41,029 bases of DNA from Candidatus Avidehalobacter gallistercoris (GTDB taxonomy: Bacteria; Bacillota; Dehalobacteriia; UBA4068; UBA4997). The position numbers and the translations under genes were made by a program. The notes under the pieces were generated by a model. It had not been told where the DNA came from, did not search any database, and worked only from the letters and a program-made list of their open reading frames with translations. Positions 333 through 34,466 of the stretch are shown here, one piece after another (positions within the stretch are counted from its first letter, which is position 1; the number at the start of each line of letters is the position of its first letter). The DNA lies in assembly GCA_018715045.1 (NCBI GenBank), contig DVMH01000030.1, positions 1 to 41,029 on the forward strand, in the 5' to 3' direction.

Positions 333-1535
333 GTGGAATTAATTGGTGCTGTACTTGTCGACTTTTATAAAAGCACATCGTTCTACATCTTGGACTGGCG
401 TTCGCTGGTTATGATTTGTGTAGCGTTGCTGTTTATGTATCTGGCAATTAAGAAAGGTTTTGAGCCGCTGCTGTTGGTTCCCATTTCCTTCGGTATGTTG
501 CTGGTTAATATCCCTGGTTCCGGCGTTATGCTTGACCCCACTTTGGGTTTTGATGCCGACGGCCACACCGTCGTAACTGAAATCGGCGGTATGTTGTATT
601 ATCTGTATCAGGGCGACCATCTGGGCGTTTTCCCGCCGCTGATGTTCCTTGGTATCGGCGCTATGACCGACTTCGGTCCGGTTCTGGCGAACCCCAATAG
701 CCTTATCTTGGGTGGCGCCGCTCAGTTCGGCGTTTTCCTGGCACTGTGGGGCGCTCTGATGCTCGACGAATATGTGCCTGGCGTAACTTTCAACTTTGCT
801 GAAGCTGCTTCTATCGGTATCATTGGCGGCGCTGACGGCCCGACTTGTATTTACCTGTCCGGCAAACTGGCTCCCCACCTGATGGGTCCGATCGCAGTTG
901 CTGCATATTCTTACATGGCTATGGTGCCGATTATCCTGCCGCCTGTTATGAAAGCTTTGACTTCCAAACATGAGCGCCAGATCGTTATGAAGCAGCAAAG
1001 GCCGGTTAAGAAGCTGACTAAGATCCTGTTCCCGATCGTTAACACCATCGTTGTTTCGATGATCGTTCCGTCTGCTTCTTCTCTGATTGGTATGTTGATG
1101 CTTGGTAATCTGTTCCGTGAATCTGGTTGTGTTGACAGACTTTCCGATACCGCTCAGAATGCTCTGTGTAACATTATTACCATCTTCCTCGGCACCTCCG
1201 TTGGCGCCACCACTCAGGGCACTACTTTCTTGACTCCTCAGACCATCTCCATCTTCGTTTTGGGCGTATTCGCTTTTGCTTCGGCCTGCGCCGGTGGTGT
1301 TCTGGTAGCCAAGTTTATGAACCTGTTCCTGAAAGAAAAACTGAACCCGCTGATTGGCGCTGCTGGCGTATCCGCAGTTCCGATGGCTGCCCGTGTTGCT
1401 CAGAAGGTTGGTCAGAAGGATAATCCTGCTAACTTCCTGCTGATGCACGCCATGGGCCCCAACGTTGCCGGTTGTATCGGTACCGCTGTGGCGGCTGGTA
1501 TTCTGTTGACTCTGAACGGCGTATTCCTCGCCTAG
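333..1535 (+). CDS. Na+-translocating decarboxylase beta subunit (OadB/MmdB/GcdB family)
   Basis: This is a 400-residue polytopic membrane protein that decarboxylates the carboxybiotin carrier and uses the energy to pump Na+ out of the cell. The motif IIGGADGPT at about residues 163-171 matches the family's Na+/proton-binding segment with its essential Asp (here about residue 168). Hydrophobic segments run through the whole length and the size is usual for the family. GTG at 333 is chosen because AGGAGGG at 319-325 sits 7 bases upstream. It is probably the last gene of the decarboxylase operon, since a terminator follows at 1566-1600. The substrate (methylmalonyl-CoA, glutaconyl-CoA or oxaloacetate) is unresolved because the alpha subunit is outside the window. 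Confidence 0.93.
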   Translation: MELIGAVLVDFYKSTSFYILDWRSLVMICVALLFMYLAIKKGFEPLLLVPISFGMLLVNIPGSGVMLDPTLGFDADGHTVVTEIGGMLYYLYQGDHLGVFPPLMFLGIGAMTDFGPVLANPNSLILGGAAQFGVFLALWGALMLDEYVPGVTFNFAEAASIGIIGGADGPTCIYLSGKLAPHLMGPIAVAAYSYMAMVPIILPPVMKALTSKHERQIVMKQQRPVKKLTKILFPIVNTIVVSMIVPSASSLIGMLMLGNLFRESGCVDRLSDTAQNALCNIITIFLGTSVGATTQGTTFLTPQTISIFVLGVFAFASACAGGVLVAKFMNLFLKEKLNPLIGAAGVSAVPMAARVAQKVGQKDNPANFLLMHAMGPNVAGCIGTAVAAGILLTLNGVFLA

Positions 1536-1565
1536 TCAACTGCTTCAGGCTGCAAGGCTTATTTA

Positions 1566-1600
1566 GAGAGTCACTCTTTTTAAGGGTGGCTCTCTTTTTT
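1566..1600 (+). terminator. Rho-independent terminator of the decarboxylase operon
   Basis: GAGAGTCAC (1566-1574) pairs with GTGGCTCTC (1586-1594), with one G-T wobble, and is followed by six T residues. Confidence 0.88.
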
Positions 1601-1611
1601 ACGCCCATTTC

Positions 1612-1640
1612 TTGCACGTTTTGCTAAATGGGTGTATAAT
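1612..1640 (+). promoter_or_regulatory. Promoter of the AEC permease gene
   Basis: TTGCAC (1612-1617), a 17-base spacer and TATAAT (1635-1640), located between the preceding terminator and the permease start. Confidence 0.75.
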
Positions 1641-1662
1641 ATAAGCCATTGGGGGAGTGAGC

Positions 1663-2604
1663 ATGGCAAACTTTTGGCTGGCGTTTGGGGCGGTGTTCCC
1701 CATGTTCTGCTATATGGCGCTGGGCAAGCTGATAAGCTGGCTTAAATTCATGAAATATGAGGATTTTCGGCAGCTCAATCAAGTGATTTTTGAGTTCTTT
1801 ATACCGTGTATGCTGTTCTCCAGCATCTACAATTCCGATTTCAAAAGCGCCGCCAATCCCTGGCTGATTGCCGAAGTGGTGGGAGCGGTGCTGCTAGTAT
1901 ATGTGACGCTGTGGTTGGTGGTGCCGCATTTTATTAAGGAAAAGCGCAACGCCTCGGTGGTTATTCAGGCATGGTACCGCAGTAATTTTGTTCTGTTCGG
2001 CATGCTGCTGGGCGGCAACATTTATCCCGACCGTGATTTGGGCATTATCGCTTCAATGGCAGCGTTTGTGGTGCCGCTGTTTAATATTCTGGCTGTTATT
2101 CTGTTTGAGGCGTTTCGCGGCGGCAAGGTATCGATTGTAACTATTATTAAAAAAATATTCCAGAACAAGCTGGTTATTGCCGGAATGTTGGGCGTATTTT
2201 TTGCGGCTACGGGTATCCGTCTGCCGCTGTTGCTCTCCGACGTTATCTCAGATGTCGGTAACGTCGCTCTGCTGATGGCCCTGGTCTGTATAGGCGGCAT
2301 GTTGTCTTTCGGTAGTGTAATGCACGATTGGCCGCTGCTGGCGTGGGCGCTTTCCGGGCGGTTGCTGGTTGTGCCTCTGCTTGCCCTGCCGCTGTTCGTA
2401 GCGTTGGGGTGTCGTGACGTTGAGTTGGTGGCTATCTTAGCGGCGTTTGCCTCGCCTTGCGCTGTTGCGGGCGTACCAATGGCCTATGCAATGGGGGCTA
2501 ACGGTGATTTGGCAGGCGAAGTACAGGCCGTTAGCTCGGTGGCCTGTCTGTTCACCATGCTCATTTTCATTTGGGTGCTGCGCAGCTTTGGCTTTATTGC
2601 GTAA
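1663..2604 (+). CDS. AEC-family transporter (auxin efflux carrier/malate permease type)
   Basis: A 313-residue membrane protein of about ten hydrophobic segments, the usual length for the AEC family. Charged residues are sparse outside the loops, and the C-terminal half has the family's Gly/Pro-containing helices, with SPCAVAGVPMAYAMG near residue 270. Members move organic acids such as malate, or other anionic metabolites; the substrate cannot be read from the sequence. ATG at 1663 is preferred over the in-frame GTG at 1657, because the GTG lies inside the GGGGGAG ribosome binding site (1651-1657). The gene is monocistronic: it has its own promoter, and the tRNA-Trp promoter follows just after its end. 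Its position behind a decarboxylase operon fits dicarboxylate transport, but that is inference. Confidence 0.85.
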   Translation: MANFWLAFGAVFPMFCYMALGKLISWLKFMKYEDFRQLNQVIFEFFIPCMLFSSIYNSDFKSAANPWLIAEVVGAVLLVYVTLWLVVPHFIKEKRNASVVIQAWYRSNFVLFGMLLGGNIYPDRDLGIIASMAAFVVPLFNILAVILFEAFRGGKVSIVTIIKKIFQNKLVIAGMLGVFFAATGIRLPLLLSDVISDVGNVALLMALVCIGGMLSFGSVMHDWPLLAWALSGRLLVVPLLALPLFVALGCRDVELVAILAAFASPCAVAGVPMAYAMGANGDLAGEVQAVSSVACLFTMLIFIWVLRSFGFIA

Positions 2605-2614
2605 ATAAAATTGC

Positions 2615-2643
2615 TTGACTATACCGCCGCGATAGTGTATAAT
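2615..2643 (+). promoter_or_regulatory. Promoter of tRNA-Trp
   Basis: TTGACT (2615-2620), 17-base spacer, TATAAT (2638-2643), 14 bases before the tRNA. Confidence 0.85.
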
Positions 2644-2657
2644 ATATGAAGTTGCAA

Positions 2658-2733
2658 AGGGGTATAGCTCAATTGGTAGAGTAGTGGTCTCCAAAACCAT
2701 TGGTTCTGGGTTCGAGTCCTAGTGCCCCTGCCA
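2658..2733 (+). tRNA. tRNA-Trp (anticodon CCA)
   Basis: A full cloverleaf can be drawn. The acceptor AGGGGTA pairs with TGCCCCT, the anticodon arm has loop CTCCAAA giving anticodon CCA, the T loop is TTCGAGT, and a G discriminator is followed by encoded CCA at 2731-2733. Confidence 0.96.
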
Positions 2734-2766
2734 AAAAGGCCGCTCTTGTTAGAGAGCGGCCTTTTT
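2734..2766 (+). terminator. Terminator after tRNA-Trp
   Basis: AAAAGGCCGCTC (2734-2745) pairs with GAGCGGCCTTTT (from 2754), and the T run ends the hairpin. Confidence 0.9.
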
Positions 2767-2827
2767 CATATTTGCTGCGCTATGGTTTGTCCAATGCTTA
2801 GGCCGTTATACTGCGCCGCAATAGATA

Positions 2828-2860
2828 AATGAACTCATCTTCAGCCGGGTTCATTTTTTT
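2828..2860 (+). terminator. Possible second terminator without an obvious upstream gene
   Basis: AATGAACTC (2828-2836) can pair with GGGTTCATT (about 2847-2855), followed by an uninterrupted T run to 2860. The 60 bases before it contain no gene I recognise, so it may be a backup terminator or end a short transcript. Confidence 0.45.
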
Positions 2861-2871
2861 GCTGCGGCAGC

Positions 2872-2900
2872 TTGTCAAAAGCTTGTTTTTAGTGTACAAT
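2872..2900 (+). promoter_or_regulatory. Promoter of ispE
   Basis: TTGTCA (2872-2877), 17-base spacer, TACAAT (2895-2900), 47 bases upstream of the ispE start. Confidence 0.75.
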
Positions 2901-2947
2901 ATTAATAAATTGTATTTTGTGTTTCTGTTGAGCAGGAGGCGTGATTT

Positions 2948-3790
2948 ATGGCCTATCAGGGTATCGCGGCGGCTAAGTTGAATCTTTCGCTGGACGTGCT
3001 TGGCAAGCGTGCCGACGGCTATCATGAGCTTAAAAGCGTTATGCAGACGCTGTCTATCGGCGATGTAGTGGAAGCAGAGCTGTCATTGGAAACAAAAGTT
3101 ACTGCTACTGATCAGGCGTTGGCTTGTGATGAGAGTAATTTGGCGTGGCGTGCTTATCAACTGATGCATGAGGAGTTTCGGCTGGATGCCGGGCTTACTA
3201 TCCGGCTGGAGAAGCATATCCCGCTGGGCGGCGGTCTGGCCGGAGGAAGCTCGGATGCAGCGCAGGTGCTGCTGGCCGTAAATGAGCTGTTTCAGCTTAA
3301 TTTGTCTCAGGAACGTTTGCTGGCGCTGGCGCTTAAGCTGGGGGCAGACGTGCCTTTCTGTTTTGTGGGTGGCACGGCGCTGGCCACCGGCACAGGTGGG
3401 GAACTTCAGCCGCTTGATCCCTGTCCTGAGCTGCGTCTGGTACTGGTGAACCCCGGTTTTGCTGTGCCAACGGCTGATGTTTACAACCGGCTGGATGAAC
3501 TGTCGCTCATGCCCACCGCTTACACTGATGGCGTTTTGCAGGCGTTGGCGGCGGGCAGCCCGATGTCTTTACGCGCTGTGGTGGGAAATGGGCTGGAACC
3601 TGCGGCTTTTCAGTTATATCGGGAACTGGCGAAGCTTGCAGATGAACTGGCAGATTTGGGCTTGACGCCATTGCTCTGCGGCAGCGGTGCAACGCTGGCT
3701 GGCATTGCATGCGATAAAAAGCAGGCAGCGATTGCGGCAGACGCGCTCTCTGGGAAATATCCCTTTGTTCACGCGGTGACGACACATTAA
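2948..3790 (+). CDS. ispE: 4-diphosphocytidyl-2-C-methyl-D-erythritol kinase
   Basis: A 280-residue GHMP kinase. It phosphorylates the 2-hydroxyl of CDP-methylerythritol with ATP in the non-mevalonate (MEP) isoprenoid pathway. The N-terminal segment with AKLNLSLDVLGKRADGYHEL is diagnostic for IspE, including the Lys and Asn that bind substrate. The glycine-rich ATP loop LGGGLAGGSSDAAQ lies at about residues 96-109, and the third GHMP motif is GLTPLLCGSGATL near residue 240. A strong site, GCAGGAGGC, precedes the ATG at 2948. The GntR regulator and ligA follow on the same strand with short gaps (27 and 35 bases) and no visible promoter between, so a three-gene operon is likely. The length is normal. 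Confidence 0.95.
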   Translation: MAYQGIAAAKLNLSLDVLGKRADGYHELKSVMQTLSIGDVVEAELSLETKVTATDQALACDESNLAWRAYQLMHEEFRLDAGLTIRLEKHIPLGGGLAGGSSDAAQVLLAVNELFQLNLSQERLLALALKLGADVPFCFVGGTALATGTGGELQPLDPCPELRLVLVNPGFAVPTADVYNRLDELSLMPTAYTDGVLQALAAGSPMSLRAVVGNGLEPAAFQLYRELAKLADELADLGLTPLLCGSGATLAGIACDKKQAAIAADALSGKYPFVHAVTTH

Positions 3791-3817
3791 ATTTTGGGAA
3801 GATTGTAGGGGATTCTG

Positions 3818-6569
<2,752 letters not shown>

Positions 6570-15509: not shown

Positions 15510-15525
15510 GCCACAGAGCAGAGTC
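15510..15525. repeat. Left attachment-site copy of the tRNA-Thr 3' end
   Basis: GCCACAGAGCAGAGTC, identical to 19858-19873 inside tRNA-Thr (acceptor and T-arm side). Bases outside the 16 differ, so this is a short exact direct repeat with no remaining tRNA around it. Confidence 0.8.
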
Positions 15526-15621
15526 AATTAAAACCAAATTTATCCAGCAGAGAGGTGGAGTGGTAATATATTGGGCTGGCAAGGTAATATCAAGTAATAG
15601 TGAAGTAATGTGAGTTTACTC

Positions 15622-15670
15622 TTTATCAGAAATCGGACAGACAACGGTATATAATCATGTTTCTGATAAA
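15622..15670. repeat. 11-bp inverted repeat spanning a TATAAT box
   Basis: TTTATCAGAAA (15622-15632) and its exact complement TTTCTGATAAA (15660-15670) enclose 27 bases that contain TATAAT at 15650-15655. No good -35 is spaced to that box. The repeat sits 25 bases before the secreted-protein start. It could be an operator or a leader hairpin. Confidence 0.55.
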
Positions 15671-15695
15671 ATATTTAAAAGAGAGGAGAAAACGT

Positions 15696-16433
15696 ATGAA
15701 ATATAAATTGTTAAAAACTATGTTTCTTAGTTGCGTTCTACTTATAATGTTCTGCACTTCTGCGTTTGCTAGTACGGGAGCAGTATTATTGGACTCAAAA
15801 GAAACTGTAATTGACGGTCAAAAGGTTATTGTTAATACATATGATGATAATGGTTATATTGTGCAGACATTCAAATGGCCAGATGCAACTTGTGGTATAG
15901 AGAGTAAATTATCCGAACAGGAAATGGACACTTTTATAGATGCAAATTATCCCGCAGTAATTCAGGAATATGCAGAGGAGATTGATCTTTATTCTGGTCC
16001 CATTTCTTTTGATAAGCGAGCTCAGTCTTCTCAGAATGCATATTGTGCAGTGCGAACGGTTGGCGATTTTTATGCAACTTGTTTATTGCCGCCGTTTAAG
16101 ACAAAGGTTGTTGGCGGATATCTACGTGGATATTATGGTGGCCCTACAACAGCAACTAAAATAACCTTAACTGAAACATATAATTTTTCGGGAATAGATG
16201 TTACCGTTTCTTGGCCGCCAGGGGTTTCTGTCACGGGTAGTAGCTATACCTGGACATCGGATTCTTATGATGATACCAATATGGCTACTGCACATCGTGA
16301 GGATATTGAAGGCCAGAGTATATTAGCCGATTGTACCTTAGGTATAAATTCCCGAGCGGATATCTATCTTGGAAATGTTTCTTATTCGGCAGTTGCAAAT
16401 GTTTCTTGTAAAACAAAAGATTTTGTTGAGTAA
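15696..16433 (+). CDS. Secreted protein of unknown function (island cargo)
   Basis: A 245-residue protein with a clear signal peptide: residues 1-4 are basic, a hydrophobic core follows, and cleavage is likely after SAFA at about residue 25. The mature part has five cysteines and a C-terminal half rich in Thr, Ser, Tyr and Val in alternating patterns, suggesting beta structure (for example ITLTETYNFSGIDVTVSW). I do not recognise the family. ATG at 15696 is chosen since AGAGGAGA lies 6 bases upstream; an in-frame ATG at 15657 would add a charged segment in front of the signal peptide. A hairpin separates it from the next gene, so it may be made in excess over that gene. Confidence 0.75.
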   Translation: MKYKLLKTMFLSCVLLIMFCTSAFASTGAVLLDSKETVIDGQKVIVNTYDDNGYIVQTFKWPDATCGIESKLSEQEMDTFIDANYPAVIQEYAEEIDLYSGPISFDKRAQSSQNAYCAVRTVGDFYATCLLPPFKTKVVGGYLRGYYGGPTTATKITLTETYNFSGIDVTVSWPPGVSVTGSSYTWTSDSYDDTNMATAHREDIEGQSILADCTLGINSRADIYLGNVSYSAVANVSCKTKDFVE

Positions 16434-16438
16434 AATTT

Positions 16439-16471
16439 ATGGATACGCCTAAATAGTATAGGCGTATCCAT
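16439..16471. terminator. 13-bp hairpin between the two island cargo genes
   Basis: ATGGATACGCCTA (16439-16451) and its exact complement (16459-16471) flank a seven-base loop. No T run follows on the plus strand, so it is more likely an attenuating or 3'-protecting structure than a full terminator. Confidence 0.5.
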
Positions 16472-16493
16472 ACTATATTGCAATGGAGGGAAT

Positions 16494-18314
16494 ATGATAA
16501 AGTATCGTAAACAAACTTGGATGGTTATATCGTTGTTATGCATACTGTTATTTTTTTGTGGATTATTCTTATATCATAAGAATGAAATGAAAACATCATG
16601 TGATATCAATGAGCGAGAGTTGCTTGATAACATAGAATGTATGAAACAACGCGATGGTGGATTTTGTGAGATTAATATTATAAACTCCAGTACCTTGTAT
16701 ACATACTTATTTGATACTTATAATGCAATATATATTTGTGATAAACTTGATATAGATATACCAGAAAAATATTTAAAAGACTTGGTCGAAACAATGCGTG
16801 AAATGACAATAGAAGATATTATTGTTACTGGTCTTTATGATGATGTTAATAGAACATTGTACTATTTAAAGATAATGGATATGTTAAACATAGATATAGA
16901 TCAAGGCTTAGAAAATACTTTGTTAACGCACATAAAAAATCTTCAAAGTGACGAAGGTTTCTTTTACAACTCGACAAAAGAAAAGAACGAATACGATAAT
17001 TATTTAAAACAATATAAAGAAAATGATCCAATAATATTGGCTACAATGACTAATGCTATTGATATTATTAAAGGTAAAAATCTTGATATAAATAAAGAAA
17101 GTCTGATCCAATGGATTCAAAGATCTTTATCTGTATTATCATATGATGATACGATAAATGATATGAGTATTGCGACAATTGACACTATAATTAAAGCAAT
17201 TAATGAATTAAATCTTGATATTGATATTATTGATTTAGATAATATTAATAAACTTTATCAGAAATATTATGAAAAATTTGAAAGCACAGCTATTGATACT
17301 CTTTATTTATGTGAATTATATGAAATAGGGTAATTTTTACTTGATAACAATTTGGGAACCGTATATATACCTGATTTTTTAAATAAATTAACTAATGCTC
17401 TTGCTGTTGACTTGAAAAAGTATTCTAAAGAAAGTCCTTTTTTTATGTATCATATTATAAAATCAGAGGCTGAAATAATAATTGATCCGAAGTTAAGAAA
17501 AGAAATAGAAAATACTCTTTTTTCTAAGATAACATATAACGGTCTCTTTTCACACTCTACTTATGCTACTTCTGATATAACTAGTACATACTATGCTACT
17601 ATGATATTAGATAAATTGGGGGAAAGGGATAATGATATAATAAGATATATTGAAAATAATCTAAATGATAAAAAAATAGATACTTCACGAATGGCTACAT
17701 CAGAGGTATTGATGTTAATGCAGATTGCTAAAAAGTATAATATTGAACTTGATAAAGCATTTATAAATCATTATTTTAATATAACTTTTGAAAAAGCATT
17801 GAGTGTCAATTATGAAAGGAATAAGAATTTAATTCTATTATTATTCGAAACGGCAAGTCTTTATAACTATAAATATATTGAAGAAAACAGTTTTTTAGAA
17901 AAGATTTTTGATGTATTAGATGCATACGAAAATAACAATGAAATGCTGGGAAATGATAACGATAGTAATATAATAACATTGCAGTTTGTCAATGAATGTG
18001 TTAATTTGAGAATATTATACTTAATTGATCCGAGCAAAGTTAGCAGAGATAGAATTGAAAATTTAATTAATAAGTATAGCCAGAATTACAATATGTTTTT
18101 AGATAGACTTTATGTTACTGCTATTATGGTTCCATTGTTGGAAAAAGTGGAGTACACCAATATAAGACTACCTGAGGATATCGTATATGATCTGAAAAAG
18201 CAATTAAATACACATACAAAGCATAAATTCTTTATGTATTCAACATATGATACTCCAGATTTTGAAAGCACATTTAGTTGCTTAAATATTATCAAATTCT
18301 TACAGCAGAAGTGA
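16494..18314 (+). pseudogene. Membrane-anchored helical-repeat protein interrupted by an in-frame TAA
   Basis: The first part (16494-17333) encodes 279 residues and the rest stays open in the same frame to TGA at 18312-18314, so one TAA (17331-17333) splits a frame of about 606 residues. The N-terminus has one hydrophobic anchor (about residues 9-27), then an extracytoplasmic, mainly helical region. Units such as RDGGFCEINIINSSTLYTYL and NGLFSHSTYATSDITSTYYA follow the GxF...T...Y/A..L pattern of alpha/alpha-toroid proteins (prenyltransferase/terpene cyclase-like repeats). No DxDD catalytic motif is seen, so a binding role is more likely. GGAGGG precedes ATG 16494; the second part has only a TTG at 17352 with no ribosome binding site. 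Very AT-rich. A nonsense mutation, stop readthrough or two real genes are the options; fold assignment is tentative. Confidence 0.65.
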
Positions 18315-18391
18315 GGAGAGTAAAATGTTGAGTTGTCTGGTAGTCTGAGGACGTAGAAAGATGAATTTAATTAGTAAAGCGAGGAAAAATC

Positions 18392-18499
18392 ATGGATCTT
18401 CCAGTAACTGCCTATATTTTTACGATTGTTAATTATGTATTAATAATAGGAATGCTTTATTTATTATATAGGCTATTTAAATATTTCAAAAAAAAATAA
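18392..18499 (+). CDS. Small single-pass membrane peptide, unknown function
   Basis: A 35-residue frame from ATG 18392 to TAA 18497-18499, with GCGAGGAAAA placed 5 bases upstream. It is hydrophobic from about residue 8 to 28 (YIFTIVNYVLIIGMLYLLY) and ends in a basic tail with several Lys. It follows the interrupted repeat protein by 77 bases on the same strand and precedes a terminator, so it may be the last gene of the island's cargo unit. No family recognised. Confidence 0.5.
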   Translation: MDLPVTAYIFTIVNYVLIIGMLYLLYRLFKYFKKK

Positions 18500-18579
18500 A
18501 GCAAGGTATTACTTGTCGATAATAATATATTAGAATGTTGTTGGCAAAATATCTATAAAGGTAGTACTTTTAATTCATA

Positions 18580-18621
18580 AAAAAACAGGTGGTAAAGCAT
18601 ATAGCTTCTCACCTGTTTTTT
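18580..18621. terminator. Bidirectional terminator after the island cargo
   Basis: AAAAAACAGGTG (18580-18591) pairs exactly with CACCTGTTTTTT (18610-18621). Confidence 0.85.
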
Positions 18622-18722
18622 ATATGATTGTTAAGAAATTCTTTGCTGATTTTTGTCGCGCACCTTTGATTGTTGAGATTTTGAATGACAAAGATACCCG
18701 TATTTGCAAGGAGCAGGAAAAT

Positions 18723-18818
18723 ATGATATTATTGAAGCTGCAAGAGGTTAATGACCGCTTAGCGTTCTTTGAAAACTGCATAACTATTTTGGGTATATGC
18801 CATTTGAAGGAGAATTGA
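18723..18818 (+). CDS. Short hypothetical gene upstream of the integrase
   Basis: A 31-residue frame with AAGGAG 8 bases before ATG 18723; the frame is open back to 18624, which would give 64 residues but without a ribosome binding site. The sequence (QEVNDRLAFFENCITI) is amphipathic and may form a coiled helix. Its end contains the AAGGAG that would have served the integrase, as in compact element operons. It may be a remnant. No function is assigned. Confidence 0.35.
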   Translation: MILLKLQEVNDRLAFFENCITILGICHLKEN

Positions 18819-18825
18819 AACAAAT

Positions 18826-19641
18826 AGCAAAAAAATTAAACGGTGCGTAACCGTTAACGATAAACAATATTGGATACGTGCTAATACTGAACAGGAATAT
18901 GCCGATAAACTAATACATTTATTGATGACCGGGTCAGCGCTCCCAAAGTCTATTTTCAAGGATTATGCTATAAAGTGGTTTGAAGTATATTCTAAGCCTA
19001 ATATTGAAATAGTCATCGCTACAACCTATGCGCGCCAGCTAAAGAAATATTTAGTACCATATTTTGGTGATATGGATATTGAAGATATAACTACTGACGA
19101 TATTCAGCGGTTTTTTTAACGGAATGGAGGGTGCAAAGGCTATAAAGTAGAAAGGCATAACTTTGCACCCATTAAGGCTGGAGGAGGTTTTTGGGCTGCA
19201 ATGGTGTGATATAGATGTTGAAAACATGGTGTTGCATATAAGACGGGCTGTAACGCACCCAACGCGCAACAGGCCGGAGATTAAGGATACCAAAACGGCG
19301 GCCAGTGTCAGAGATTTGTGGCTTGCAGAAACGGCAAGGAAATACCGGACAGATGGTGCCGCTGATGATCTTGTGATCGGTGGAAAAAGCCTGTAACCTA
19401 TACACAGGTACGCTGTATGTGTGAGCGCATACAAAAGGACATCAGTTTTACGGAAAACATTACACCTGTCAGGTTTAGAACAACCGTATTAACTGACGTC
19501 TATGATAAAACCAAAGATGTAAAGCAAACGCAATTAGCCGCCGTACATACTACTGCTGCGATAACCCTGAAACATTATATTAAAGGGCGCGGTAATCTGG
19601 CCAATGTTGCTGTAGTTATCGAGAACTCTTATTTGGCATAA
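18826..19641 (+). pseudogene. Tyrosine-family site-specific integrase, decayed
   Basis: The start codon is missing. Readable N-terminal and core-binding parts (TVNDKQYWIRANTEQEYADKL, then TTYARQLKKYLVPYFGDMDIEDI) run to a frameshift in the T tract at about 19110; in the other frame FFNGMEGAKA continues. About 90-100 residues are then absent compared with such integrases. The catalytic region resumes near 19163 with LHPLRLEEVFGLQWCDID (the first catalytic Arg), shifts again at an A run near 19388, and finishes with RFRTTVLTDVYDKTKDVKQ and AAVHTTAAITLKHYIKG, holding the second Arg, the His and the nucleophile Tyr. It lies next to tRNA-Thr, its likely target. No working protein is possible. Confidence 0.85.
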
Positions 19642-19799
19642 TGCCTTAAATTTGGCACGAAAATTGCTCGGTGCAAATCGCTGCAAGCCTTGCTGGGCGC
19701 GGCTTTGCGGGGTGTCACAAGCAAAAGAAATTGCTAAAATGCCAATAATCAGCTATAAAGCAAAAAAAAGGGGGCGTTAATGATGCAGTATTTCATAAA

Positions 19800-19842
19800 A
19801 AGCAAAAGCCCCAAACCCGAGTGAACACTGGGTTTGAGGCTT
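19800..19842 (-). terminator. Present-day terminator of tRNA-Thr
   Basis: On the minus strand, the arm 19842-19830 pairs with 19818-19806 with one mismatch, then a T-rich stretch follows. It lies inside the island, so the element supplied it. The stretch 19642-19799 shows no gene. Confidence 0.75.
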
Positions 19843-19853
19843 CTTAAAAAATC

Positions 19854-19929
<76 letters not shown>

Positions 19930-28822: not shown

Positions 28823-28881
28823 GTACTCTTTTTTGTTTTATTCGGGCAAACTGCCAAAAAAACATAAAGGAGATGCATGTA

Positions 28882-30048
28882 ATGAAGATGAAGAAGATTT
28901 TAGGGTTTTTGTGCGCCGCACTGTTGCTTTGCGCAGTGCTTACGGGCTGCTCGGACGGGCAACCAGAGGACAATAATACCCAACTAACCGATCAGGAGGC
29001 GGCAGACCAGGTGACAGCAATGATTGACGCGATTTATGTGCAGGAAAGAACTGATGAGACGGATGCGCAGTGTGAGGCTGCCAAGGCTGCTTGGGATGCG
29101 CTGACCGACGCGCAGAAAGATTTGGTGGAAGATCCTGATTACTTTGGACGTGATACCGGCGATGCTGCTGCTGACGACCCGTTGAATGCCGACGGCATTG
29201 GCGAGAATGAACTTCTGGTAGCCAGCTTCGGTACTTCGTTCAACGACAGCCGGGTGGCTGATATCAAGGGTATTGAGGACGCACTGGCGGCTGCTTATCC
29301 CGATTGGTCGGTACGTCGCGCTTTTACTGCGCAAATCATTATTAACCACGTGCAGGCGCGCGACGGCGAAAAGATCGATAATATGCAGCAAGCGCTGGAG
29401 CGTGCTGTGGCTAACGGTGTGAAAAATCTGGTTATCCAGCCAACGCATTTGATGCATGGTGCCGAATATGACGAGCTTTCTGATGCTGTTGCCGCTTATC
29501 AGGACAAGTTTGAATCCGTCAGAATTGCCGAACCGTTGCTGGGTCAGGTAGGCGATTCGGCCACCACGGTTAATGCTGATAAACAGGCCGTGGCTGAAGC
29601 TATCACCGCTGAGGCAGTGCAGACTGCCGGTTATGCTGATTTGGCCGCTGCCAAGGCTGACGGTGTGGCGTTCGTGTTCATGGGGCACGGTACTTCCCAC
29701 ACAGCCAAAGTATCTTACAGCCAGATGCAGGCGCAGATGGCCGAGCTGGGTTATGACAACGTGTTCATCGGCACTGTTGAGGGTGAGCCGGAAGAAACCT
29801 CTTGTGAAGCTGTTATTGACAAAGTGGCTGCCGCTGGTTATCAGAAAGTAGTTCTCCGTCCGCTGATGGTAGTTGCCGGAGACCATGCCAGCAACGATAT
29901 GGCTGGCGATGACGAGGATTCCTGGAAGAGCATGTTCAATAATTCCGGCAAGTTCACCAGCGTTGATACGCAGATTGCCGGCTTGGGCCGTATCCCAGCC
30001 ATTCAGGCGATTTATGTGGCGCATACCGCCGCAGCAATTGCTGAATAA
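28882..30048 (+). CDS. cbiK: Exported sirohydrochlorin cobaltochelatase (CbiK family lipoprotein)
   Basis: A 388-residue protein with a lipoprotein signal (lipobox LTGC, Cys23), so the enzyme is tethered outside the cytoplasmic membrane. After a linker of about 80 residues that includes an ALTDAQKDLVED helix motif common in surface proteins, the chelatase core starts at about residue 110 with LLVASFGTSFNDSR. Further blocks are IIINHVQARDG, PTHLMHGAEYDEL and FVFMGHGTSH, which supply the metal-binding and catalytic His. CbiK inserts cobalt into sirohydrochlorin; exported forms are known in Desulfovibrio. ATG 28882 is 9 bases after AAAGGAG; the ATG at 28873 touches the site. First gene under the B12 riboswitch. 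Confidence 0.9.
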   Translation: MKMKKILGFLCAALLLCAVLTGCSDGQPEDNNTQLTDQEAADQVTAMIDAIYVQERTDETDAQCEAAKAAWDALTDAQKDLVEDPDYFGRDTGDAAADDPLNADGIGENELLVASFGTSFNDSRVADIKGIEDALAAAYPDWSVRRAFTAQIIINHVQARDGEKIDNMQQALERAVANGVKNLVIQPTHLMHGAEYDELSDAVAAYQDKFESVRIAEPLLGQVGDSATTVNADKQAVAEAITAEAVQTAGYADLAAAKADGVAFVFMGHGTSHTAKVSYSQMQAQMAELGYDNVFIGTVEGEPEETSCEAVIDKVAAAGYQKVVLRPLMVVAGDHASNDMAGDDEDSWKSMFNNSGKFTSVDTQIAGLGRIPAIQAIYVAHTAAAIAE

Positions 30049-30074
30049 TAAATATGTGATTGGAGTTGGTAAAG

Positions 30075-30539
30075 ATGAAACATAAATGGATTACTTTAGC
30101 TTTTTTGATTTTGGCAGCTTTGACTGCGCTGGCCGGTTGCGGCGGCGATGAAACTAATGCTAATGTGTTAACGGACGGCGTGTATACTGCTGATTTCAAC
30201 ACCGACAGCACTATGTTTCATGTGAATGAGGCCTGTGACGGCAAAGGCACGCTGACGGTAAAAGACGGCGAGATGGTAATTCATATCTCTTTGCCCTCCA
30301 AGAGTGTGCAGAATCTTTATCCCGGCTTGGCGGCAGACGCTGAACAGGAAGGCGCGGAACTTTTGCAGCCCACAGTAGATACTGTGACATACAGCGATGG
30401 TATGTCAGAGGAGGTGCACGGCTTCGATGTGCCAGTGCCGGCTTTGGACTCGGAATTTGATTTGGCGCTTATCGGCACCAAGGGTACTTGGTATGACCAT
30501 AAGGTCAGTGTCTCCAATCCGGAAAAGGTGGAGGAATAA
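30075..30539 (+). CDS. Small lipoprotein of the corrinoid cluster, unknown function
   Basis: A 154-residue lipoprotein (lipobox LAGC, Cys22). The mature domain is one beta-rich unit beginning DGVYTADFNTDSTMFHVNEA and including GTLTVKDGEMVIHISLPSK and GFDVPVPALDSEFDLALIG. The layout recalls NEAT-like ligand-binding folds: a DG-x-Y opening, then a strand pair with KDG, then a PVPALD segment. The next gene has a related opening, so the two may be distant relatives. It starts 27 bases after cbiK and should share its riboswitch control; a terminator follows. Binding of a corrinoid, heme or metal is a reasonable guess, not shown. Confidence 0.75.
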   Translation: MKHKWITLAFLILAALTALAGCGGDETNANVLTDGVYTADFNTDSTMFHVNEACDGKGTLTVKDGEMVIHISLPSKSVQNLYPGLAADAEQEGAELLQPTVDTVTYSDGMSEEVHGFDVPVPALDSEFDLALIGTKGTWYDHKVSVSNPEKVEE

Positions 30540-30554
30540 ACAAACGTAAAATTA

Positions 30555-30600
30555 AATCTTGCCCCTGCTGGAAAAAGGCGGGGGCAGATTTGTATTTATA
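30555..30600 (+). terminator. Terminator after the cbiK-lipoprotein unit
   Basis: AATCTTGCCCCTGC (from 30555) pairs imperfectly with GCGGGGGCAGATT (30578-30590), followed by a T-rich stretch. It separates the riboswitch-controlled pair from the uptake genes. Confidence 0.7.
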
Positions 30601-30618
30601 GCCAAATTCTGTTATACT
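30590..30618 (+). promoter_or_regulatory. Promoter of the corrinoid-uptake genes
   Basis: TTGTAT (30590-30595), 17-base spacer, TATACT (30613-30618). A second TATAAT at 30622-30627 lacks a spaced -35. The leader of about 30 bases is too short for a riboswitch. Confidence 0.6.
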
Positions 30619-30656
30619 GTTTATAATACCGTCGATTTGACAGCGAGGAACATATT

Positions 30657-31142
30657 ATGAAACAAAAATTATGCCTGATGGCGGTTTGTCTGCTGCTGAT
30701 GTTGCTGCCAGCACTGAGTTTTGCCTCTCCGCTTGATTTGGCGGACGGCGAATACACGGTAGCGGTAGAGCTTTCCGGCGGCACTGGACGCTCGACAATT
30801 GCCTCGCCTGCGCGGCTGATGGTGCAGAACGGCGAAGCTTTTGTACGCATTGAGTGGAGCAGCCATAATTACGATTACATGAATCTGAATGGAGAGCAGT
30901 ATTTTCCGCTGGCGGACGAGGAGAACTCGGTGTTTGAGCTGCCGGTAAAGACTTTTGATGAACCGATCACCGTTATTGCTGATACCACTGCCATGAGCAC
31001 CCCGCATGAGATCGAATACACGCTGGTGTTCGACAGTGCGAGTATTGCCTCCGGACGGCAGATGGCATACCCTTACGGCGTGTTATGCCTGGTGCTGATG
31101 CTGCTGGTGTTGTTTTCCCTTGGGCGGAAAAAGGTTAAATAG
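30657..31142 (+). CDS. Membrane-anchored NEAT-like protein
   Basis: A 161-residue protein with an N-terminal signal peptide (cleavage probably after LSFA, about residue 23), one beta-rich domain and a C-terminal hydrophobic anchor (about 140-155) followed by GRKKVK. The domain starts ADGEYTVAVELSGGTGRSTI, continues MVQNGEAFVRIEWSSHNYDYM and ends TPHEIEYTLVFDSAS. The strand order, the S-x-N-Y-D-Y-M block and the anchor recall NEAT domains of heme uptake proteins, though the identity is distant. It is the first gene of the unit with the BtuF/BtuC/BtuD-like transporter, 12 bases ahead, so a role in passing the ligand to the binding protein is plausible. Confidence 0.72.
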   Translation: MKQKLCLMAVCLLLMLLPALSFASPLDLADGEYTVAVELSGGTGRSTIASPARLMVQNGEAFVRIEWSSHNYDYMNLNGEQYFPLADEENSVFELPVKTFDEPITVIADTTAMSTPHEIEYTLVFDSASIASGRQMAYPYGVLCLVLMLLVLFSLGRKKVK

Positions 31143-31154
31143 AGGAAGAATACT

Positions 31155-32303
31155 ATGTTAAAAAGACTGTGCATGTTGCTTGTGATGGTTATATTGCTTT
31201 CAATGTTTACAGCCTGCGCGGGCGGTGAGCAGCCGTTTGATTTGGCAGAGCGCGAAACTGATATCAGCCCCGATTTGACGTTTGAACGTAGTATGCCGCT
31301 TGATTACGCCACGGAATTTGCGGTGGATTATTATGACGGCGGCTATGCGCTGATTACCGTTTCAACGCAGGACAGATATCTGGTGATACCGGAGGGATTG
31401 AGTGCGCCTGCCGGTTTGCCGGAGGATATCGTGCCGCTTTTTCAGCCGCTCGATAATATTTATATAGCCGCCTCTGCTGTGATGGATATGTTCGTGACAA
31501 TTGACGCGCTGGACAGTGTGCGTTTCAGTGCGCTGCAGGCGTCATCCTGGTATGTGCAACCTGCGCGTGAGGCGATGGAGGCTGGAGAAATATTATTTGC
31601 GGGCAAACATTCCACGCCCGATTACGAGCAGATTTTGACCGAGGGCTGCGGTCTGGCAGTGGAAAACACCATGATTTATCACAATCCGGAAGTAAAAGAG
31701 CAGCTGGAGAAGTTCGGCATACCGGTGCTGATCGATTATTCCAGCTATGAGGATAACCCGCTTGGGCGGACGGAATGGGTGAAGCTATACGGCCTTTTGA
31801 CCGGACATGAGGACGAGGCCGAAGCGGCTTTTGCAGCCGAACAGGCGGCGTTTGAAGCGATAAGCAAGGCAGAGGCGACGGGTAAAACAGTGGCTTTCTT
31901 CTATATTAATGTCAACGGCGAGGTCAATGTGCGCAGCACCACTGATTACATACCCAAGATGATTGAAATGGCTGGCGGCAAGTACATCTTTGAGGATTTG
32001 GGGGCGAAAGATGAGACGGCCTCAACCATCACCATGCAAATGGAGGATTTTTACGCTCAGGCTAAAGACGCTGATTATATCATCTATAACAGCACCATTG
32101 ACGGCGAACTGAACGACCTGGCAGAGCTTAACGCTAAAAGTCCGCTGCTGGAAAAATTCCGCGCGGTGCAGCAGGGTAACGTGTTTTGCACGACTAAGAA
32201 TCTCTATCAGGAAACGATGGAGCTGGGTACGTTCATTTCGGATATCAACCGTTTGCTTTCCGGTGAAACAGACGGTATGACGTATATATATAAGCTGGAG
32301 TGA
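31155..32303 (+). CDS. ABC transporter substrate-binding lipoprotein (BtuF/FepB-like)
   Basis: A 382-residue class III periplasmic-binding-type protein with lipobox FTAC (Cys21). A two-lobed fold joined by a long helix is implied by the segments IYIAASAVMDMFVTIDALDS, then AGKHSTPDYEQILTEGCGLAVENTMIYHNPEVKEQLEKFGIPVLIDYSSYEDNPLGRTEW and EMAGGKYIFEDLG. These match the family binding iron-siderophores, heme or cobalamin. Next to a B12 riboswitch and CbiK, corrinoid is the likely ligand. GAGGAAG precedes ATG 31155. The permease starts 5 bases after its stop. Confidence 0.85.
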   Translation: MLKRLCMLLVMVILLSMFTACAGGEQPFDLAERETDISPDLTFERSMPLDYATEFAVDYYDGGYALITVSTQDRYLVIPEGLSAPAGLPEDIVPLFQPLDNIYIAASAVMDMFVTIDALDSVRFSALQASSWYVQPAREAMEAGEILFAGKHSTPDYEQILTEGCGLAVENTMIYHNPEVKEQLEKFGIPVLIDYSSYEDNPLGRTEWVKLYGLLTGHEDEAEAAFAAEQAAFEAISKAEATGKTVAFFYINVNGEVNVRSTTDYIPKMIEMAGGKYIFEDLGAKDETASTITMQMEDFYAQAKDADYIIYNSTIDGELNDLAELNAKSPLLEKFRAVQQGNVFCTTKNLYQETMELGTFISDINRLLSGETDGMTYIYKLE

Positions 32304-32308
32304 GTTAA

Positions 32309-33349
32309 ATGAGCAAAGGAAAAAGATACGGCGCCGCTTTTGTGATATTGTTGGTGCTGGTGGCAGTGTTTCTGGTGCTGAATATTTGCATTGGCAGCGT
32401 GAACATACCGCTGGCCGATATTGTTGACATCATCAAGAGCGCTGTTGGGAACAGTGCCGCTGCCAACATTGCAGGCGATAGCAGTACCTATGCCGATATC
32501 GTGTTGGATATCAGAGCACCCCGGGCGCTGGCCGCTGTTATTTTGGGCGGTGCGCTGGCTCTTTCCGGCTATCTGCTGCAAACGTTCTTTCATAACCCGA
32601 TCGCCAGCCCGTTTACTCTGGGCATTTCTTCTGGTGCAAAGCTGGTGGTGGCAATGGTTATGGTGGTGGCGCTGGGCTATTCGCGTCAGGTCAGTTCCTG
32701 GCTGCTGATATTGGCCGCGTTTGCCGGCGCGATGGTCTGTATGGGATTTGTGATATTGATGTCGCGCGTAATCAACCAAATGTCCATGCTAATTGTAAGC
32801 GGCGTGATGATCGGTTATATCTGTTCAGCAGTTACGGATTTTGTTGTCACTTTCGCCGACGATTCCGATATTGTGAATCTGCATAACTGGTCGCTTGGCA
32901 GTTTTTCTGGCATTAGCTGGGATAACGTGGCGATTATGGCCAGCGTGGTAGGTGTGGCTACGCTCTGCGTTTTCCTGCTCAGTAAACCCATCAGCGCCTA
33001 CCAGATGGGCGAGGCATATGCGCAGAACATGGGTTTAAACGTGCAGCTTTTCCGCATTGTACTGGTGATACTCTCCAGCGTGCTGGCGGCTGCGGTAACA
33101 GCGTTTGCCGGTCCTGTATCATTTGTTGGCATTGCGGTGCCGCATTTGGTGAAGAGCCTGTTCGGAACGGCACAGCCGCTTTTAATGGTGCCGGCCTGCT
33201 TTCTGGGCGGTGCGACGTTCTGTTTGCTCTGCGATTTGCTGGCCCGTACAATGTTCGCACCAACCGAGCTTTCGATCAGTACGGTGACTGCCATGCTTGG
33301 TGCGCCGGTGGTGATATATGTGATGATCCGCCGTCAGAAAGAAAAGTAA
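32309..33349 (+). CDS. ABC transporter permease, FecCD/BtuC family
   Basis: A 346-residue permease of about ten membrane helices. Family blocks are present: RAPRALAAVILGGALALSGYLLQTFFHNPIASPFTLGISSGAK (about residues 68-110) and, near the end, AGPVSFVGIAVPHLVKSLFG, the loop that contacts the ATPase. It carries cobalamin, heme or siderophores across the inner membrane as a homodimer. It is in one unit with the binding protein and the ATPase. Confidence 0.92.
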   Translation: MSKGKRYGAAFVILLVLVAVFLVLNICIGSVNIPLADIVDIIKSAVGNSAAANIAGDSSTYADIVLDIRAPRALAAVILGGALALSGYLLQTFFHNPIASPFTLGISSGAKLVVAMVMVVALGYSRQVSSWLLILAAFAGAMVCMGFVILMSRVINQMSMLIVSGVMIGYICSAVTDFVVTFADDSDIVNLHNWSLGSFSGISWDNVAIMASVVGVATLCVFLLSKPISAYQMGEAYAQNMGLNVQLFRIVLVILSSVLAAAVTAFAGPVSFVGIAVPHLVKSLFGTAQPLLMVPACFLGGATFCLLCDLLARTMFAPTELSISTVTAMLGAPVVIYVMIRRQKEK

Positions 33350-33365
33350 CGCTTGGGTGAACCTT

Positions 33366-34466
33366 ATGGATAATTACTATTTTTATACTGACCAGTTGAC
33401 AGTAGGATATAATGGCGTGCCATTGATCAAAAATATCCGGCTGACTCTGCACAAGGGCGAGATTTTGACGCTTATCGGCCCGAACGGCGCGGGCAAAACC
33501 ACCATTCTGCGCAGTATCATCCGGCAGTTGGAACCTATTTGCGGCGTAGTCTGGCTGGATGACCGGGAGACGCGCCAGCTCAGCCGCCATGAGCTGGCGC
33601 AAAAGCTATCTGTAGTTCTGACAGAACGCGTCAAACCGGAGCTGATGACCTGCCGCGATATTGTGGCTACAGGGCGTTATCCTTATACTGGGAATTTTGG
33701 CCGTCTGTCGCAAAATGATTGGGATATTGTAGAGGAATCTATGCGGCTGGTGCATATTACCGAGCTGGCCGACCGCGATTTTGCCCGAACCAGCGACGGC
33801 CAAAAACAGCGGGTGATGCTGGCGCGCGCCATATGCCAGCAGCCGGATATTATTGTTTTGGATGAGCCGACTTCATTTTTGGACATTCGCTATAAGCTGG
33901 AGTTTTTGGCGATATTACAAAATATGTCGCGCACACGGCAACTTTCGGTTATCATGTCGCTGCATGAGCTGGATCTGGCAGGGCGCATTTCCGATAAAAT
34001 TGCCTGTGTGCGCGGCGATAAGGTAGACCGCTTTGGCCCACCGGAGGAAATATTCACTGCAGGTTATATACCGCAGCTTTATCAGATGACTGTGGGCAGC
34101 TATGACGAACTGACCGGCAATATGGAGCTGCCTGCTGTGACAGGGGCGCCGCAGGTAGTGGTGATTGCCGGTGGCGGCACGGGAACTGGTTTGTTCCGTC
34201 GTTTACAGCGAAGCGGTCAGCCGTTTGCTGCCGGCGTTCTTTGGGAGAACGATCTGGATTATCCCACCGCCAAAGCTCTGGCGGCGCGACTGGTCAGCGT
34301 GCCCGCTTTTGCTGCACTTTCTGTGACAGCGTTGGCTGAAATGCGCTCGCTAATTGACGGTGCGGAAACAGTCATATGTACGCTGAAACGTGAGAATATG
34401 CGTGATTTGGCCGCAGAACTGGCCGATCTTTTGGTATATGCTGAAAAGCAGGGCAAACTGCAATAA
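33366..34466 (+). CDS. ABC transporter ATPase (BtuD/FepC-like) with extra C-terminal domain
   Basis: A 366-residue protein. The ATPase covers about residues 1-255: Walker A GPNGAGKTT (38-46), Walker B IIVLDEPTSFLD and an H-loop in MSLHELDLA. Two elements differ from consensus: the Q-loop reads VVLTERV without the usual Gln, and the signature is TSDGQKQR in place of LSGGQ. From about residue 258 an added domain of about 105 residues follows, starting VVVIAGGGTGTGLFRRLQRSG with a glycine-rich nucleotide-like loop, then FAAGVLWENDLDY. Similar tails occur in some corrinoid transporter ATPases, where the function is unclear. ATG 33366 is preferred to GTG 33357, as GGGTGA is spaced for it. Partner of the permease, 16 bases downstream. 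Confidence 0.85.
   Translation: MDNYYFYTDQLTVGYNGVPLIKNIRLTLHKGEILTLIGPNGAGKTTILRSIIRQLEPICGVVWLDDRETRQLSRHELAQKLSVVLTERVKPELMTCRDIVATGRYPYTGNFGRLSQNDWDIVEESMRLVHITELADRDFARTSDGQKQRVMLARAICQQPDIIVLDEPTSFLDIRYKLEFLAILQNMSRTRQLSVIMSLHELDLAGRISDKIACVRGDKVDRFGPPEEIFTAGYIPQLYQMTVGSYDELTGNMELPAVTGAPQVVVIAGGGTGTGLFRRLQRSGQPFAAGVLWENDLDYPTAKALAARLVSVPAFAALSVTALAEMRSLIDGAETVICTLKRENMRDLAAELADLLVYAEKQGKLQ

What the first reader, a model, noticed from the sequence alone, without database searches (positions are those of the whole stretch)
15510..19873. Small tRNA-Thr island with its own low-G+C cargo
A 16-bp exact repeat (GCCACAGAGCAGAGTC) joins the right end, inside tRNA-Thr, to a solitary copy 4.3 kb away. 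Between them are a dead tyrosine integrase beside the tRNA and a compact AT-rich cargo not resembling phage structural or conjugation genes. The cargo is a secreted protein, a membrane-anchored repeat protein and a tiny membrane peptide. None is a recognised defence, toxin or resistance gene, so this is the best candidate here for an undescribed envelope or secreted system.
Basis: partly seen in the sequence, partly recalled or inferred. Interest (0 to 1): 0.72.

Follow-up and report, generated by a model that had tools for sequence, protein, structure and literature searches.

The report
Decayed tRNA-Thr island with orphan cargo
A small foreign DNA element once inserted itself into the end of a threonine tRNA gene of an uncultured bacterium; its integrase is now wrecked, and it carries three little-known envelope-type genes, one of them apparently broken, so it is a real but ordinary kind of genomic island.

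Summary
The 16-bp repeat occurs exactly twice in the genome, at 15510-15525 and inside tRNA-Thr(GGT). Two congeners show the predicted empty site: xth, one copy of the repeat as the tRNA-Thr 3' end, then luxS, contiguous. The integrase is dead: about 73 residues are missing, with an in-frame stop and at least one frameshift. Its nearest intact relative, on a human-faecal phage contig, ends at the 3' half of a tRNA-Thr(GGT) gene, so the target appears shared. This is a degenerate tRNA-Thr integrative element of 4.35 kb.

The claim of an undescribed envelope or secreted system is weak. The membrane-anchored repeat protein is an alpha/alpha-toroid protein (Pfam Prenyltrans, above cut-off only when read through an in-frame TAA at 17331), so as assembled it is two pieces, the second without a plausible start. 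The secreted protein is an orphan in every collection searched. The 35-residue membrane peptide belongs to a family seen confidently only in this genus: six copies in five of nine genomes, the other five at unrelated chromosomal places. No second genome searched holds the genes together. New member of a known kind, with orphan cargo; the peptide family is the most followable part.

The parts
15510..15525 (+). left direct repeat: displaced original 3' end of tRNA-Thr
   Evidence: exact 16-bp match; the upstream flank is collinear with the empty sites of G002 and G004
15562..15609 (+). four RGTAAT repeats at 15562, 15583, 15593 and 15604 just inside the left end; possible arm-type integrase binding sites (suggestive only)
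   Evidence: test not tied to this motif: 33 of 2000 shuffles reach as many copies of some 6-mer
15696..16433 (+). secreted protein, 245 aa, N-terminal signal-like hydrophobic helix, orphan
16438..16472 (.). perfect 14-bp inverted repeat between the secreted-protein gene and the toroid gene; on the minus strand it scores as a terminator
16494..17333 (+). N-terminal piece of the membrane-anchored alpha/alpha-toroid protein (279 aa, one TM helix), ending at an in-frame TAA
17334..18314 (+). C-terminal piece of the same toroid frame (about 325 aa); no SD-preceded start codon
   Evidence: weak Prenyltrans match on its own (20.4 bits)
18392..18499 (+). 35-aa single-pass membrane peptide, member of a family seen confidently only in this genus
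18575..18625 (+). hairpin plus T-run, terminator-like, downstream of the peptide gene
   Evidence: fold z = -5.7 for 18500-18640; not listed by the consensus scan, whose loop limit is 8
18818..19641 (+). tyrosine integrase pseudogene: N-terminal/SAM-like part to 19119, about 73 residues missing, catalytic part from 19157 in two frames
19858..19873 (+). right direct repeat, in the 3' part of tRNA-Thr
19854..19929 (-). tRNA-Thr(GGT), intact attachment target

Best explanation
A small tyrosine-integrase element recombined into the 3' end of tRNA-Thr(GGT) between xth and luxS. Integration left a complete tRNA gene, whose 3' end now comes from the element, and pushed the original 16-bp (about 20-bp with drift) tRNA end to the far side at 15510. 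The element has since lost its integrase and cannot excise by its own enzyme. Shown: the repeat, the tRNA target, the empty sites, the dead integrase, and a related integrase ending at a tRNA-Thr 3' half. Inferred: the cargo is a secreted soluble protein and a membrane-tethered extracellular toroid protein that may once have worked together at the cell surface, for example in ligand binding; the toroid gene looks inactivated, and the 35-aa peptide is a gene type of the host genus carried along by the element, not a dedicated third component.
For: Repeat unique in the genome. Empty sites in G002 and G004, with the joined flanks aligning through a single repeat copy at about 80% identity. Composition break. 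Integrase domains PF14659 and PHROG 1 integrase in fragments. Relative to the 408-aa integrase of MT840047.1: 43, 54 and 64% identity over three pieces, a gap of about 73 residues, one stop and a frame change. That contig ends in the 3' half of tRNA-Thr. Other integrases of the class are 29% identical or less to it. Prenyltrans match over cut-off on read-through. Peptide family at unlinked places in congeners.
Against: The 35-aa peptide could belong functionally to the cargo; only its relatives' positions argue otherwise. The TAA in the toroid gene could be an error of the metagenome assembly. The arm-site repeats are only weakly above chance. Fold models were too poor to use (pLDDT 38 and 45).
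Confidence: 0.88

Rival explanations
1. The three cargo genes form a working, undescribed envelope or secreted system: secreted effector or ligand, membrane-anchored toroid partner, and small membrane subunit.
For: Same strand, close spacing, all three membrane- or export-directed, foreign composition. In G006 a peptide relative also directly follows a secreted-protein gene (193 aa), which is unrelated in sequence.
Against: In-frame TAA splits the toroid frame. A perfect 14-bp hairpin separates genes 1 and 2. No genome searched carries two of the three together.
Confidence: 0.1
2. The 35-aa peptide is a type I toxin-like membrane peptide (a small addiction module) that helped the element persist.
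For: Single hydrophobic segment with a basic tail, RBS and a strong downstream hairpin, several scattered copies in one genus.
Against: DNA conservation covers only the coding region and about 25 bp upstream, with no conserved antisense region downstream. No Rfam family other than tRNA reaches its gathering score; no PADLOC hit. Copies sit next to housekeeping genes such as dnaA and transketolase.
Confidence: 0.1
3. No island: ordinary chromosomal AT-rich genes and a chance repeat.
For: None beyond the shortness of the repeat.
Against: Two clean empty sites, the integrase remnant, and a relative of that integrase ending at a tRNA-Thr 3' half.
Confidence: 0.02

Closest known systems
tRNA-targeted integrative elements and genomic islands of tyrosine integrases (small degenerate form)
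   Same: tRNA 3' end target, short direct repeats, integrase beside the tRNA, empty site in relatives, AT-rich cargo
   Different: integrase destroyed; no replication, mobilisation or structural genes recognised; only 4.35 kb
integrase of Bacteriophage sp. MT840047.1 (human faecal contig)
   Same: same integrase lineage (43-64% identity by piece) and apparently the same target, tRNA-Thr(GGT)
   Different: intact reading frame; different neighbouring genes; only 4 kb of that element is known
Pfam PF00432 Prenyltrans (alpha/alpha toroid) proteins
   Same: read-through protein scores 31.7 bits against a cut-off of 26.5
   Different: membrane-anchored; no detectable similarity to the Prenyltrans proteins of congeners; frame interrupted

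Membership tests
tRNA-integrated genomic island | direct repeat of a tRNA 3' end at both ends | tested here: met
tRNA-integrated genomic island | empty site with one repeat copy in relatives | tested here: met
   G002 and G004
tRNA-integrated genomic island | integrase gene next to the tRNA | tested here: met
   present, but as a pseudogene
mobile (active) integrative element | intact integrase | tested here: not met
   about 73 residues missing, one stop, one frame change
prophage or phage satellite | phage structural or packaging genes in the island | tested here: not met
   no PHROG structural hit to the ORFs scanned, apart from one marginal tail-fibre match (E 0.049) to the integrase piece
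ICE or IME | relaxase or conjugation genes | tested here: not met
   none among the island ORFs scanned with Pfam, NCBIfam and PHROGs
PF00432 Prenyltrans | score above Pfam's gathering cut-off | tested here: met
   only for the frame read through its stop; each piece alone is below it
PF00432 Prenyltrans | alpha/alpha toroid fold | tested here: inconclusive
   all-helical model, but pLDDT 45
type I toxin-antitoxin | small hydrophobic peptide | tested here: met
type I toxin-antitoxin | antisense RNA overlapping the toxin mRNA | tested here: inconclusive
   no conserved antisense region or Rfam family; expression not testable

The most novel reading that the evidence does not exclude
The 35-aa peptide family (consensus about MNLPVSxYILxxVNFVxLIGMxYLVYRxFKYFKKK) is an undescribed, genus-restricted membrane microprotein that moves as a solo cassette (RBS, peptide, terminator) to different chromosomal sites and onto islands; on this island it may act together with a membrane-tethered toroid protein and an orphan secreted protein.
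Probability: 0.15. Interest if true: 0.5.

Novelty: new member of a known kind. Interest (0 to 1): 0.22.

Why it matters
It documents a tRNA-Thr(GGT) integration site between xth and luxS in an uncultured Peptococcaceae-type genus, with clean empty sites and a related integrase apparently using the same target. The cargo is of modest value: an orphan secreted protein, an interrupted toroid protein, and a small membrane peptide family that recurs across the genus and could be tested simply.

Tried and rejected
Secreted protein: pattern scans of viral and genome contigs, tblastn against phages and plasmids, and 398 phylum genomes gave no relative; the weak phylum hits are chance matches (for example a thioredoxin-like protein and, by eye, S-adenosylmethionine synthetase). 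Toroid protein: no relative in plasmids, viral contigs or 398 phylum genomes; the phage hits are marginal helicase matches. No phmmer hit to the Prenyltrans proteins of congeners, which carry SLH-like repeats and sit in another context. AlphaFold without an alignment was poor for both, and the Foldseek search had no E below 0.001. A relationship between the island's secreted protein and the one next to the G006 peptide was tested and rejected. The gene between xth and tRNA-Thr in G008 is an SdpI-family gene with no direct repeat, not a sister island. Peptide hits outside the genus (E 2e-4 to 1e-3) have a similar layout at best and are not convincing homologues. Two paper searches gave nothing useful.

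Full report
Observation. The repeat GCCACAGAGCAGAGTC occurs at 15510-15525 and 19858-19873, and nowhere else in the 1.45-Mb assembly. The right copy lies in the 3' part of tRNA-Thr(GGT), 19854-19929 on the minus strand. G+C falls from about 50% in the flanks to 23-28% in the middle of the interval, and third-position G+C from 59% in xth to 17-26% in the cargo genes.

Empty site. Searching xth-to-luxS DNA against the genus gave matches to flank DNA in all eight other genomes. In G002 and G004 the two flanks meet: xth, a short spacer, one copy of the repeat as the 3' end of tRNA-Thr, then luxS, and the joined window flanks align straight through (one copy only in each). The sequence GTGTG just outside the left copy is also present in the empty sites, so the left copy is the displaced native 3' end and the stretch from 15526 to 19857 is inserted. 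In G008 an SdpI-family gene and a small ORF lie between xth and the tRNA, without a repeat. In G001, G003, G005, G006 and G007 the tRNA lies near xth in the other orientation.

Integrase. The fragments match the SAM-like N-terminal domain (PF14659) and PHROG 1 integrases. The only close relative found is the 408-aa integrase of MT840047.1, a human-faecal phage contig. Against it the window gene keeps an N-terminal stretch with one stop, lacks about 73 residues, and continues in two different frames. That contig ends, about 200 bp after the integrase, in the 3' half of a tRNA-Thr(GGT) gene (ARAGORN does not call it because it is cut off), so the lineage's target appears shared. Other integrases of the class are 29% identical or less, and those of the phylum sample 28% or less at E up to 1e-15. 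Four RGTAAT repeats lie just inside the left end, perhaps arm-type sites; a test not tied to that motif reaches the same count in 33 of 2000 shuffles, so this is only suggestive.

Cargo. (1) 15696-16433 encodes a secreted 245-aa protein with no family match and no relative in any collection searched. (2) 16494-18314 is one frame with an N-terminal membrane anchor, interrupted by TAA at 17331-17333. Each piece matches Prenyltrans weakly; read through, the frame passes the Pfam cut-off (31.7 against 26.5 bits). The second piece has no start codon with a Shine-Dalgarno sequence, so as assembled the gene looks broken. It has no relative in 398 genomes of the phylum. (3) 18392-18499 encodes a 35-aa single-pass peptide with a basic tail. 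It has five relatives in four other genomes of the genus: after a transketolase-type gene in G007 (and, judged by its close similarity, the same place in G001), between dnaA and dnaN in G005, after a sigma-factor/DUF4367/secreted-protein cluster in G006, and elsewhere in G006. Conserved DNA covers the coding region and about 25 bp upstream only. So the peptide is not a specific partner of the other two genes. Gene names dnaA, dnaN, luxS and transketolase are by eye from the translations; xth is supported by PF03372.

How it works. Established: site-specific insertion at the tRNA-Thr 3' end by a tyrosine integrase, with the tRNA restored by the element. Inferred: the two large cargo products act at or outside the cell envelope, perhaps as a tethered binding protein and a secreted partner; the toroid gene is probably inactive now. 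The element is a remnant and cannot move with its own integrase.

Novelty. The element type is well known. The cargo is poorly known, mainly because the two larger genes are orphans and one is interrupted. The peptide family was not found in the libraries used and may be worth a simple expression test.

Noticed in passing
G001 C6:105597, G007 C48:14813, G005 C25:82772, G006 C28:286-390 and C41:9059-9163: A 35-aa membrane peptide family at unlinked places in the genus, one copy between dnaA and dnaN; only the coding region and about 25 bp upstream are conserved.
   Followed up: yes
L026 (G008 C24), 1320-1697: An SdpI-family gene lies between xth and tRNA-Thr in a congener, at the spot where the island sits in the window, without a direct repeat.
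   Followed up: partly
L082 (MT840047.1), 2565-4036: Human-faecal phage contig with an intact integrase of the same lineage; the contig ends in the 3' half of tRNA-Thr(GGT).
   Followed up: yes
window 28873-34466: By eye, a cobaltochelatase-like lipoprotein gene, two small secreted-protein genes, and a metal or cofactor ABC uptake set (binding protein, permease, ATPase); not scanned with family models.
   Followed up: no
window 16438-16472: Perfect 14-bp inverted repeat between the first two cargo genes; could be an attenuator, or a terminator on the minus strand.
   Followed up: no
L029 (G006 C28), 408-3315 minus: Sigma-factor-like gene, DUF4367 gene and two secreted-protein genes directly before a copy of the 35-aa peptide.
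   Followed up: partly
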